A stretch of 64,000 bases of DNA from Acarospora socialis (taxonomy: Eukaryota > Ascomycota > Lecanoromycetes > Acarosporales > Acarosporaceae). Under the pieces are notes generated by a model that was not told the origin of the DNA, ran no database searches, and saw only the letters and a list, made by a program, of their open reading frames with translations. Below, in pieces: positions 53,730 to 57,173 of the stretch (its first letter is position 1; each line of letters starts with the position of its first letter). Location: positions 372,001 through 436,000 of the forward strand of contig JAMYGW020000007.1 in assembly GCA_025617375.2 (NCBI GenBank). The letters run 5' to 3'. Both the position numbers and the translations under genes were made by a program.

Positions 53730-53886
53730 GGCTCAATGGTCTAGTGGTATGATTGTCGCTTCGGGATATTAAAGCCTGGACATCGGAGATGTCTATATAT
53801 GTGACAGGCCCCGGGTTCAAAGTACGTCCGTGATCAAATCGTTTCCCACTTATTTATTAACAATAATGGTAGTCCCGGTTGAGCCC
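53730..53886 (+). tRNA. tRNA-Pro(CGG) with anticodon-loop intron and T-loop insertion
   Basis: The acceptor 5' strand GGCTCAA (53730-53736) pairs perfectly with TTGAGCC (53879-53885). The A box reads TGGTCTAGTGG (53737-53747). The anticodon stem is GTCGC (53755-53759) with GTGAC (53801-53805), allowing one G-U pair. Loop TTCGGG gives anticodon CGG, proline. A normal 34-nt tRNA intron (53766-53799) follows position 37. The T stem is CCGGG (53811-53815) with CCCGG (53874-53878), but the loop is split after TTCAAA by a 51-bp insertion (53822-53872). Without it the loop is the normal seven bases. The insertion breaks the 3' end of the B box. CCA is not a guide in eukaryotes; base 53886 is the discriminator. 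A run of five T follows at 53894. Confidence 0.85.
53822..53872 (+). other. Spliceosomal-intron-like insertion in the tRNA T-loop
   Basis: 51 bp beginning GTACGT, with TTATTAAC about 10-17 bases before the end and terminating GGTAG. Donor, branch-like site, acceptor and length all match the spliceosomal introns of the protein genes in this window (mostly 47-80 nt, several GTACG donors). Its excision leaves an exactly paired T arm and acceptor stem. It may be a transposed intron (introner-like), an ectopic tRNA intron cut by the tRNA endonuclease, or an insertion that silenced the gene. Confidence 0.7.
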
Positions 53887-53893
53887 CAGAATC

Positions 53894-53898
53894 TTTTT
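53894..53898 (+). terminator. Pol III T-run terminator
   Basis: TTTTT begins eight bases after the tRNA discriminator base, with a second T5 run about 6 bases further on. This is the usual RNA polymerase III stop and shows that the transcription unit downstream of the insertion is still arranged as a tRNA gene. Confidence 0.75.
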
Positions 53899-54068: not shown

Positions 54069-57000
54069 TCACAACTTGGCCTTCCCCGATCCCTCCAAAA
54101 GATCGGCCCCACCCCCCGCAATACACAATTTGCCCGTCTCAACCACCTTTGTCTGAAACACGACCTTCCCTCCTTCCCTCCACATCTCCGTCCGCAGCGT
54201 CTGCCCCGGCAACACCGTGCCCGCAAACCTTACCTTGATGTTCTTGAACGGCCCATAAGTCTGATAAACGTGCTTGCCTGAGATCCCAAAGAAGCACAAC
54301 CCATGCAAGATGGGCGTCTTGAAGCCGCCGACCTTCGCAAACTCCGGGTCGATGTGCAGAGGATTCCGGTCACCGTTGAGGCGGTAGAGGGCCGCCTGCT
54401 CTTCGGTCGTCTTTTCCTCGACTGCGGCGTCCGGGTTACGCTGAGGGGGCTTGTTGGCGGCCGTGGCGGCGCCGCGGTCAGATCCCTTCTTGGGGCCGCC
54501 GAAGCCGCCAGAACCGCGGATGAAGAGAGACATCTCGTTGTAAAAGAGGTCGCGGCCCGTTTTGGCGTCGGTGGTGGTGGTGCCGTAGACTTGGATGGCG
54601 GCGTTGCCTTTGTCGAGGACCTCAATGAGTTTGGGCTGGTTGATGACGCGAGCGGAGGTCGGGATGGGGTATTGGCGGATTTCGAGGTATTGTTCGCCGT
54701 GTAGGAGCATCATGGGTGAGAAATTGGGGACGAGCTCGGACATGTCCCAAGGGGTTGTACCGCTGAAGCAGGGTATCACGCCGTAGGTGGGGAGCACTTG
54801 GAAGTTGTCGGAGTTTTCGTAGACGAGGGGGAGTTCGGTGCGCTTGGCGCCTATTCCGAGATCTGAATATCGTGGTCAGTAGAGATTCTGAGAAGACGAA
54901 CGTGAGTCGTACTGTAGAGAATAACATCCTTGTCGTCATATGAGAATTCAGTCTCTTCCGTTTTGGCCTTCTTTGCCTTGTCGATATTGTCTAGGTATTT
55001 CTGATTGTCATTGCCCTCCTGTTTTGAACCGCCACTGCTCCTGTTCTGCATGTTGTTCATGATACTCTTCAAACCATCTTGAGCATCCTCGGGGTGATCA
55101 GCTCGACCGTCATCAAAATTGATGATATCTGTCCAAGCCTTGGCGACTGCTTCGGGTGTCAATTTGACATCGATTGGGAAGCCGTGACCGCCGCTTCTTT
55201 GCCAGCGTGTCCGCGCATGCCAGCCACTGCCGACCTCGAATAAGCCACCAGTTGCGGGATTCGGCACTTTGTCGGAGCTTAGAAGAACGACCATAGGGGC
55301 GACCTGATCTGGCTTGAATGCTTGGACCATTTCTTCAGGCATGATACTGCGGGTCATGTTTGTACCGGCGTTGGGTGCGATTGTATTGACGTAAATGTTA
55401 TACTTGGCACCTTCACGAGCAAGGGCGCGAGAGAAGCCAAGGATGCCGAGTTTCTACACGCCAATCAGTCATGCTGCAAGTACTGATGACACTTATAGGA
55501 CTCACCGCTGCCGCGTAGTTCGCTTGACCGAAGTTACCGTATATACCGCTGGTGCTGGTAGTATTGACGATCCTGCCGTACTTCTGCTTCAAGAAATACG
55601 GCCATGCGGCTTTGGTAACCTTGTAAGTCCCCCGTAGATGAACCGCAATGACCTGATCCCACATCTTATCGTCCATATTTGTGAAAGCCTTATCCCGAAG
55701 AATACCCGCGTTATTGATGACGATGTCGATACGACCATATGCGTCAATAGCAGCCTTCACAACCGCATCACCATCTTCCGCTGATGCTTTGTTGCCGACG
55801 GCCTGACCCCCATTCTTCTGTATCTCCTGAACGACGTCATCTGGGCTGACAAGATCGTTGACGACAACAGCCGCACCGTATTTGGCGAACAGTAAAGCAT
55901 AAGCCCGTCCAAGACTGTTACTCGTTAGTACCTCCACTGCCTCATGTCGAAACGTCTGCACTCACCCTGCACCAGCTCCAGTGATAAGAGCGACCTTGCC
56001 CTTGAAATCTGGCTGCTCGGTAGCCTGATTGTCCCCCAGCTTCTGGGCCTCTTCCAGCAGAGTCATGAAGTCTGCAACACCGGTAGGGTAACTAGGCTTG
56101 GAGAAGTCGTTCACATCGCTCCACTTCTTCAGAATAGCCCCTGGCGTCAACGTAGGCCCAGTCTTGAGCAGAGCACCTTTTGCACGCTCCCATCTCAGTT
56201 TCGCCATGTGACCACCACCGACCTCAAAGATGGAGCCCGTCTCCTGTTTATTTGACGGGTGAACAAGCACAGCCACGAGTGGCACGACCCAGTCTGGTTT
56301 GAGGTTTTCGAGGATGTCCGGGGGCATGACAGTTTGGGTCATACGGCTGGCGGCTGGAAGAAATGTCAGCCCGCTGTATTACTTATGCCTACTGGAAAGG
56401 CATGAGTTTTAAGCTCACCTATTGGTGCAATGACGTTGCATAGGATGTTGTATTTGAAGCCTTCCTTAGCCAGAGTTTCTGTGAACCCGACTTGAGATAA
56501 TTTGGCAGCTACAATCTTCAGTAACCAAGCCACTCTTTGTTCGAATCAAGCCTACCTGAGTAGTTGGTCTGTCCAAAGCTACCAAAAAGCCCAGCAGCAG
56601 AGGCAGTGTTGATTATCCGTCCATACTTTTGCTTCCTAAAATGCGGCCACGCAGCCCTCGCACACTATCGCAGCACTCCCAGTCAGCCAACAAGACTATT
56701 ATTCCAAACGTTGGGAATCTAGGTTCACCTTGAAAGCACCCTTCACATGGACCTTGATAATCAGATCCCAGTCCTCATCCTTCATATTCTTGAAGCTAAC
56801 ATCCCTCAGAATCCCCGCATTATTGATAAGCACATCGATCCTCCCGAACGCCTGAATGGCCGTCTCGATAATCTTCTCCCCGTTCTCGACACTGTCGTAG
56901 TTCGCGACCGCTTTGCCGCCCGCGGCTTTGATCTCGTCGACGACTACATCGGCGGCCTAGACACATGTTCAGCATTACGTAGAATATGGCGCGACGGAAA

Positions 57001-57173
57001 TGAGCGGTCCGCTGTACCTTCGATGATTGTCCTTCTCCTTTGAACGAGCCCCCGAGATCATTAACGACGACGTTGGCGCCCCGAGAGCCGAAGAAGGTGG
57101 CATATGCCTTTCCCAGCCCTCCGCCGGCGCCGGTGACGACGACAGTCTGATTGTCGAAGCGTAGTTCTGACAT
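54069..57173 (-). CDS. FOX2: FOX2, peroxisomal multifunctional beta-oxidation enzyme
   Basis: Eight exons on -: 57173-57018, 56956-56729, 56664-56556, 56508-56419, 56353-55966, 55914-55506, 55453-54913 and 54862-54069. They give 904 residues, the normal length, with phase correct at all seven introns (47-65 nt). Two short-chain dehydrogenase units: unit 1 has TGAGGGLG (14-21), Ser150 and Tyr163/Lys167; unit 2 has ITGAGAGLG (about 317-326) and Tyr457/Lys461. The C-terminal hot-dog domain is enoyl-CoA hydratase 2, with [14 protein letters not shown] carrying Asp805, Asn807 and His810. The C-terminus GKAKL ends in AKL, an acceptable PTS1 peroxisome signal. The enzyme hydrates trans-2-enoyl-CoA and oxidises (3R)-hydroxyacyl-CoA. 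It is head to head with the glycerate kinase gene. Confidence 0.96.

What the first reader, a model, noticed from the sequence alone, without database searches (positions are those of the whole stretch)
53730..53886. tRNA-Pro gene interrupted in the T-loop by a spliceosomal-type intron
Besides the ordinary anticodon-loop intron, a 51-bp insertion sits after TTCAAA of the T-loop. It starts GTACGT, has TTATTAAC near its end and finishes GGTAG, the hallmarks and size of this genome's mRNA introns. Taking it out leaves a perfect 7-base T-loop, a 5-bp T stem and a 7-bp acceptor stem, and the T-run terminator follows. All stems are undamaged, so the insertion is either recent or removed from the RNA. 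It also cuts the B box. T-loop introns are known from archaea and some red algae, spliced by the tRNA endonuclease; a GT-AG intron inside a nuclear tRNA gene is, to my knowledge, not described. Fungi of this class are known for mobile introner-like elements, a possible source.
Basis: partly seen in the sequence, partly recalled or inferred. Interest (0 to 1): 0.92.

Follow-up and report, generated by a model that had tools for sequence, protein, structure and literature searches.

The report
mRNA-type introns inside tRNA genes
In what is most likely a lichen-forming fungus, at least 13 tRNA genes, including the only copies found for phenylalanine and tryptophan, are interrupted by introns that look like those of messenger RNAs, so the cell probably needs its spliceosome, besides the usual tRNA-cutting enzyme, to make these tRNAs.

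Summary
Window 53730-53886 is a tRNA-Pro(CGG) gene with an ordinary 34-nt anticodon-loop intron and a 51-nt GT...TTAAC...AG insertion at T-loop position 59/60. In its genome (31 Mb; by protein similarity a Lecanoromycete, i.e. lichen-type, fungus) I identified 45 nuclear tRNA genes. Thirteen carry 15 such insertions: D arm 7, anticodon arm 6, variable loop 1, T loop 1. Thirteen are 50-57 nt, two 86-87 nt. All 15 can be placed as GT-AG; 12 have CTRAY with its A 9-14 nt from the 3' end (shuffles: mean 0.55, maximum 4). The 30 ordinary anticodon introns measured are 9-40 nt, 0 of 30 GT-AG. Removal restores cloverleaves. Seven protein-supported mRNA introns of the neighbouring gene look alike (47-65 nt). 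Searches with spliced tRNA-Phe, -Trp and -Pro(CGG) found no other close copy. Best explanation: U2-type spliceosomal introns in Pol III tRNA genes, removed by the spliceosome; 8 of the 13 genes also have an endonuclease-type intron. Splicing is inferred; no RNA data were available. The open-access papers searched do not describe this.

The parts
53730..53765 (+). tRNA-Pro(CGG) exon 1: acceptor 5' strand, D arm, anticodon stem 5' strand, anticodon loop to position 37
53737..53747 (+). A box TGGTCTAGTGG (internal Pol III promoter)
   Evidence: matches TRGYNNARNNG (consensus recalled)
53766..53799 (+). ordinary anticodon-loop intron, 34 nt, position 37/38 (tRNA-endonuclease type)
   Evidence: one of 30 such introns measured, 9-40 nt, none GT-AG
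53800..53821 (+). tRNA-Pro(CGG) exon 2: position 38 to T-loop A59
53822..53872 (+). spliceosomal-type intron, 51 nt, GTACGT...TTATTAAC...GGTAG, at tRNA position 59/60 in the T loop
53857..53861 (+). branch-point-like TTAAC; inferred branch A at 53860, 12 nt before the intron's end (YTNAY, not the stricter CTRAY)
53873..53886 (+). tRNA-Pro(CGG) exon 3: T60, T stem 3' strand, acceptor 3' strand, discriminator C
53814..53821 (+). first 8 positions of the B box (GGTTCAAA); its last 3 (TCC) lie after the intron at 53873-53875
53894..53898 (+). Pol III terminator TTTTT
54863..57017 (-). comparison set: seven spliceosomal introns (47-65 nt) of a peroxisomal multifunctional enzyme (MFE-2) gene; window 57017-56957, 56728-56665, 56555-56509, 56418-56354, 55965-55915, 55505-55454, 54912-54863
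   Evidence: the spliced protein aligns to PDB 2et6 and 3oml without a gap at the junctions

Best explanation
The 51-nt insertion is a U2-type spliceosomal intron sitting in a Pol III-transcribed tRNA gene, one of at least 15 in 13 nuclear tRNA genes of this (most likely lichen-forming) ascomycete. The pre-tRNA is transcribed from its internal promoter with all introns; the spliceosome recognises a 5' GU site, a YUNAY branch 9-14 nt before the end and a 3' AG, and removes them as it does short mRNA introns. The tRNA endonuclease removes the ordinary 37/38 intron, present in 8 of these 13 genes. Shown: the insertions, their signals, restored cloverleaves, and no other close copy for three tRNAs. 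Inferred: transcription by Pol III, removal by the spliceosome, the order of events, and that the tRNAs are used.
For: 15 introns in 13 of 45 identified genes. All placeable as GT-AG; the best GT-AG removal ties the best cloverleaf in 12 of 15, 11 if Thr(AGT), where a different GT-AG segment ties, is not counted; shuffled inserts predict 0.40 of 15 (60 shuffles each). CTRAY with A 9-14 nt from the end in 12 of 15 (2000 shuffles: mean 0.55, max 4), YTNAY in 15 of 15 (mean 3.0, max 9). Length 50-57 nt in 13 of 15. The 30 ordinary introns measured in the same gene set are 9-40 nt, 0 of 30 GT-AG also within 3 nt either way, 0 of 30 with CTRAY (most are too short for a fair CTRAY test). Seven mRNA introns of the neighbouring gene: 47-65 nt, GT-AG, CTRAY in 5 of 7. 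After removal ARAGORN gives the expected anticodon in 10 of 13 genes, unspliced in 0 of 13. Spliced tRNA-Phe, tRNA-Trp and tRNA-Pro(CGG) each match one locus in the genome at E<=10. The two Leu(AAG) genes keep acceptor, anticodon and T stems through compensatory changes, and one has an extra 50-nt GT-AG intron absent from the other. Precedents: spliceosomal introns in lichen rRNA genes (PMC8527467) and in the Pol III transcript U6 of fission yeast (PMC8917221).
Against: No RNA data. GT-AG registers were chosen where several fit. Four of 15 are weaker: Ser(AGA)-2 (best GT-AG 1 point below the best removal), eMet (2 below), Arg first intron (3 below), Thr(AGT) (proposed removal scores 42, unspliced 41.9, other segments 47; it rests on tRNA identity). 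Lys(CTT)-2 scores 48.9 even unspliced, read as another anticodon with a 67-nt ordinary intron, against 54 spliced. GTRNG at the 5' site holds for only 9 of 15 (counted by hand). The YTNAY relaxation is post hoc, and 2 of 7 mRNA introns lack YTNAY 6-30 nt from the end. The copy search is narrow: with Pro(CGG) it did not return Pro(TGG). Strict BHB is absent, but also from the ordinary introns. One genome only. A spliceosome acting on folded pre-tRNA is unusual.
Confidence: 0.88

Rival explanations
1. Ectopic tRNA introns cut by the tRNA splicing endonuclease at bulge-helix-bulge motifs, as in Cyanidioschyzon, cryptophyte nucleomorphs and Crenarchaeota.
For: D-, anticodon-, variable- and T-arm positions and several introns per gene are known there (PMC4090602, PMC3978253 passages). 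Many nucleomorph introns lack a defined BHB.
Against: No junction has a 4/4 central BHB helix in any equivalent register (0 of 15; best 3 of 4), though relaxed forms were not tested and 0 of 30 ordinary introns pass either. GT, branch and AG signals and the ~51-nt size are not expected of such introns; 0 of 30 anticodon introns of this genome are GT-AG.
Confidence: 0.06
2. The interrupted genes are pseudogenes, and intact copies elsewhere do the work.
For: Eukaryotic tRNA genes with D- or T-arm insertions are usually taken as pseudogenes (PMC4090602). Six decoding types were not found, so the inventory is incomplete. Arg(ACG), Leu(AAG), Ser(AGA) and Lys(CTT) have two genes each.
Against: Stems intact or compensated; terminators present; one locus each for Phe, Trp, Pro(CGG). 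Random decay would not give inserts with splice signals far above shuffles.
Confidence: 0.04
3. The inserts are recent mobile introners spreading through the genome.
For: Positions differ between paralogues of Lys(CTT) and Ser(AGA); one Leu(AAG) gene has an intron the other lacks.
Against: The window insert has no second copy at E<=1e-3; by BLAST the 15 introns share only 9-10-nt words. The other 14 were not searched against the genome. This concerns origin, not how they are removed.
Confidence: 0.05

Closest known systems
Spliceosomal introns in nuclear rRNA genes of lichen fungi (Bhattacharya et al. 2000 as cited in PMC8527467; passages read)
   Same: Short mRNA-type introns, ectopic, in a non-coding RNA of lichen ascomycetes; a 57-bp one is removed by yeast from a Pol I transcript.
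   Different: Those are in Pol I rRNA; the words tRNA and Polymerase III do not occur in that paper's main text. Here many Pol III tRNA genes are hit.
mRNA-type intron of U6 snRNA in Schizosaccharomyces pombe (PMC8917221 passage)
   Same: A Pol III transcript with an intron removed by the spliceosome.
   Different: One snRNA gene, against 13 tRNA genes. The U6 match in this genome spans the whole model without an insert.
Ectopic tRNA introns of Cyanidioschyzon merolae and cryptophyte nucleomorphs (PMC4090602, PMC3978253, PMC9602550; passages)
   Same: Introns in D, anticodon and T arms of tRNA genes, up to three per gene.
   Different: Ascribed to the tRNA endonuclease and BHB-like folds; no GT-AG or branch signals are described in the passages read.
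Canonical eukaryotic 37/38 tRNA introns
   Same: 30 of the 45 genes here were measured to have one (Asn, mis-bounded, has one too), including 8 of the 13.
   Different: 9-40 nt, fixed position, no GT-AG.

Membership tests
U2-type spliceosomal intron | GT at the 5' end and AG at the 3' end | tested here: met
   15 of 15 by a permitted register; ties the best structure in 12 of 15 (11 without Thr), 0.40 expected
U2-type spliceosomal intron | branch-point sequence near the 3' end | tested here: met
   CTRAY 12 of 15, YTNAY 15 of 15 (looser, post hoc), A 9-14 nt from the end
U2-type spliceosomal intron | size and signals like the host's mRNA introns | tested here: met
   50-57 nt (13 of 15), 86, 87 against 47-65 nt in 7 mRNA introns of one gene; small comparison set, in which GT-AG was imposed and reading frame and homology fixed the choice; one (F) has a second in-frame solution of 65 nt
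U2-type spliceosomal intron | removed by the spliceosome through a lariat | not testable with these tools
   needs RNA
BHB / endonuclease ectopic tRNA intron | bulge-helix-bulge at the exon-intron junctions | tested here: inconclusive
   strict 4-bp central helix in 0 of 15, but also 0 of 30 ordinary introns; relaxed forms not tested
canonical 37/38 tRNA intron | position 37/38 | tested here: not met
   none of the 15 lies at 37/38 (positions by hand)
introner | many near-identical copies in one genome | tested here: not met
   window insert single at E<=1e-3; the 15 introns show no shared sequence beyond 9-10-nt words; the other 14 not searched genome-wide
functional nuclear tRNA gene | internal promoter, terminator and complete cloverleaf after splicing | tested here: met
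   A box consensus in 10 of 13 interrupted genes, T-run starting within 14 nt in 45 of 45 (partly by search design), cloverleaf scores 42-56 spliced; B box split in Pro(CGG)

The most novel reading that the evidence does not exclude
In a lineage of lichen-forming fungi the spliceosome is a tRNA-processing machine: spliceosomal introns have settled in a large part (at least 13 of 45 identified) of the Pol III tRNA genes, among them the only copies found of essential ones. Translation in this organism therefore depends on two unrelated splicing machineries, often working on the same pre-tRNA.
Probability: 0.85. Interest if true: 0.95.

Novelty: new variant of a known kind. Interest (0 to 1): 0.93.

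Why it matters
[quoted passage not shown] If these introns are spliced as they look, the spliceosome acts widely on Pol III transcripts and on short, tightly folded RNAs. It would also make tRNA supply depend on spliceosome activity in a group already known for spliceosomal introns in rRNA, and would mean that standard tRNA finders miss or misname such genes (ARAGORN names 0 of 13 rightly unspliced). The claim could be tested directly with RNA from lichen fungi.

Tried and rejected
Pseudogene, introner and endonuclease-intron readings were weighed and put below (see rivals). The T-loop pattern GGTTCRANGTRNGT gave 16 hits against 15 in the control; of the 15 outside this tRNA two were read (L126, L127) and show no tRNA-like sequence by eye; the other 13 were not read. 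Six tRNA-like 3' ends (L057, L069, L070, L096, L097, L103) could not be resolved into genes and were left out of the count, as were a decayed Leu copy (L094), tRNA-like tandem units (L106, L121), a mitochondrial-like Met at a contig end (L041), a bacterial-looking Ser gene (C35), other pattern matches judged not to be tRNAs by eye and all organelle-type tRNAs. Asp, Cys, Pro(AGG), Arg(TCG), Thr(CGT) and Ala(CGC) tRNAs were not found. The Asn gene was bounded one base off, so its score (13) is an artefact and it was dropped from the ordinary-intron count. The T-run depletion in the introns (1 of 15 with T>=4, shuffles 4.76, P 0.014) was not used as evidence for Pol III, because 0 of 7 mRNA introns have T>=4 as well. 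The B-box patterns are blind to most T-arm introns; the listings for TGTTC (190 matches) and AGTTC (108) were cut short, and I fetched 20 places picked by eye. So all counts are lower bounds. This genome's rDNA was not examined.

Full report
The site. Window 53730-53886 holds a tRNA-Pro(CGG) gene with a 34-nt anticodon-loop intron (53766-53799) and a 51-nt insert (53822-53872) after A59 of the T loop. The insert starts GTACGT, has TTATTAAC with its A 12 nt from the end, and finishes GGTAG. Among all removals of 30-110 nt the best cloverleaf comes from removing 51 nt here, in four neighbouring registers, of which one is GT-AG. With shuffled inserts a GT-AG is among the best in a fraction of 0.02 of 60 shuffles. 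Neither ARAGORN nor Rfam at gathering threshold reports the gene unspliced.

The organism. The genome G000 (31.1 Mb, 38 contigs) is held without a name. A HRQ1-type helicase of the window is 91% identical to an unnamed protein and 85% to Hypocenomyce scalaris, followed among named ones by Lignoscripta and Pycnora; a hemerythrin-like protein is closest to Acarospora, at 69%. H. scalaris is in Lecanoromycetes, Umbilicariales. So the host is most likely a lichen-forming Lecanoromycete; the species is unknown.

It is not alone. An Rfam tRNA search of the genome listed 61 matches, most of them on AT-rich, organelle-type contigs. B-box plus terminator patterns and reading of the loci brought the identified nuclear tRNA genes to 45. 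Thirteen of the 45 have extra inserts, 15 in all: Pro(CGG) 59/60; Pro(TGG) 24/25; Lys(CTT)-1 46/47; Lys(CTT)-2 30/31; Arg(ACG) 18/19 and 32/33; Ser(AGA)-1 24/25; Ser(AGA)-2 15/16; Leu(AAG)-1 16/17 and 30/31; Leu(AAG)-2 16/17; elongator Met 29/30; Trp 28/29; Thr(AGT) 33/34; Phe 18/19 (positions assigned by hand). In the other 32 I saw none. Counts are lower bounds, and six decoding types were not found.

Signals. All 15 can be written as GT-AG. Because the register was chosen, I tested it: for each insert every removal within 15 nt of its length was scored as a cloverleaf, and the best GT-AG removal ties the overall best in 12 of 15; for Thr(AGT) the tying segment is not the one I propose, so 11. 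With shuffled inserts 0.40 of 15 is expected. The misses are Ser(AGA)-2 (1 point short), elongator Met (2) and the first Arg intron (3). CTRAY with its A 9-14 nt from the end occurs in 12 of 15 (2000 shuffles: mean 0.55, maximum 4), and the looser YTNAY, chosen after seeing the data, in 15 of 15 (mean 3.0, maximum 9). Thirteen are 50-57 nt, two are 86 and 87. GTRNG at the 5' site holds for 9 of 15 (counted by hand). As an internal control, 30 ordinary anticodon introns of these genes (Asn dropped) are 9-40 nt; 0 of 30 are GT-AG, also within 3 nt either way, and 0 of 30 have CTRAY, though most are too short to test that fairly.

mRNA introns next door. An MFE-2 gene (introns at 54863-57017, minus strand) gives seven introns of 47-65 nt, found by reading frame, homology and GT-AG ends; five have CTRAY 10-18 nt from the end and two have no YTNAY 6-30 nt from it. 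One of them (47 nt) has a second in-frame solution of 65 nt; the shorter keeps NYSAAK, like the NYAAAK of the second domain copy. The spliced protein aligns with PDB 2et6 and 3oml without gaps at the junctions.

Are the genes in use? After removal ARAGORN gives the expected anticodon in 10 of 13; for Pro(CGG) and both Lys genes it finds a tRNA but another anticodon. Unspliced, 9 of 13 are called with a wrong anticodon and 4 not at all. Spliced tRNA-Phe, -Trp and -Pro(CGG) match a single locus each in the genome; for Trp the two matched blocks meet at the proposed exon junction. That search finds close copies only: with Pro(CGG) it did not return Pro(TGG). The two Leu(AAG) genes differ by compensatory changes in acceptor, anticodon and T stems; their D-loop introns differ in length (51 and 86) and align only with many gaps (37 of 51 positions alike), and Leu(AAG)-1 has a 50-nt GT-AG intron absent from Leu(AAG)-2. 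All 45 genes have a T-run starting within 14 nt downstream, which the search partly required; the A-box consensus is present in 10 of 13. In Pro(CGG) the B box is cut after 8 of 11 positions.

How it would work. Inferred: Pol III transcribes the whole gene; the spliceosome removes the GT-AG introns; the tRNA endonuclease removes the 37/38 intron, present in 8 of the 13. The order is unknown. The endonuclease alone is less likely: no junction has a full 4-bp BHB centre (0 of 15), though 0 of 30 ordinary introns have one either, so this test alone decides little. The U6 gene of this genome matches the whole U6 model without an insert, so the introns are not a feature of every Pol III gene.

Literature. 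Ten full-text searches of open PubMed Central papers listed no report of spliceosomal introns in tRNA genes; subscription papers and preprints are not covered, and only passages of ten papers were read: PMC8527467 (spliceosomal introns in lichen rRNA), PMC8917221 (U6 intron), PMC4090602, PMC3978253 and PMC9602550 (ectopic tRNA introns), PMC13149111 (review), PMC4033280, PMC8393795, PMC11782384, PMC12730881. Bhattacharya et al. 2000 was not read; it is cited through PMC8527467.

Limits. One genome, no RNA, an incomplete tRNA list, a small mRNA intron set, Lys(CTT)-2 that scores nearly as well unspliced under another anticodon (48.9 against 54), and Thr(AGT) resting on identity with the Thr(TGT) acceptor stem rather than on the scan.

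Noticed in passing
L089 (C6) and L091 (C7): Two Leu(AAG) paralogues share a D-loop intron position, with introns of 51 and 86 nt, but only one has a second spliceosomal-type intron at 30/31: a natural presence/absence pair.
   Followed up: yes
L106 and L121 (C2:3139540-3140100): At least three tandem tRNA-like units (TAGCCTGGCTCAGTGG ... GTTCGANYCC ... T-run), possibly a SINE-like or decayed tRNA array.
   Followed up: no
L054 (C1:1-9000): The start of the largest contig listed is 29.7% GC, and C1:2658-3142 carries Val and Asp tRNAs like those of C38: chimeric assembly end or nuclear mitochondrial DNA.
   Followed up: no
G000 C15, C16, C33, C38: AT-rich contigs with several different organelle-type tRNA sets; many C15 tRNAs recur at about 131 kb offset.
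   Followed up: no
L070 (about C2:2068228-2068377): tRNA-like sequence with perfect acceptor, D and T arms but an anticodon region holding a GC-rich hairpin; could not be resolved by hand into a GT-AG removal.
   Followed up: partly
L096, L097, L069, L057: tRNA-like 3' ends with T-runs but no 5' half recognised by eye within about 500 nt; possibly genes with several introns, decayed copies or chance.
   Followed up: partly
L044, L100, L035/L095, L048: Ordinary 37/38 introns occur in both Ala genes and in one of two Gly(GCC) genes; L048 is an intronless but diverged second Arg(ACG) gene.
   Followed up: no
L125 (C5:1983605-1983704): The one U6 snRNA match at E<=1, without insert, with a B-box-like GGTTCGATTCTC beside it, as in yeast (recalled).
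   Followed up: partly
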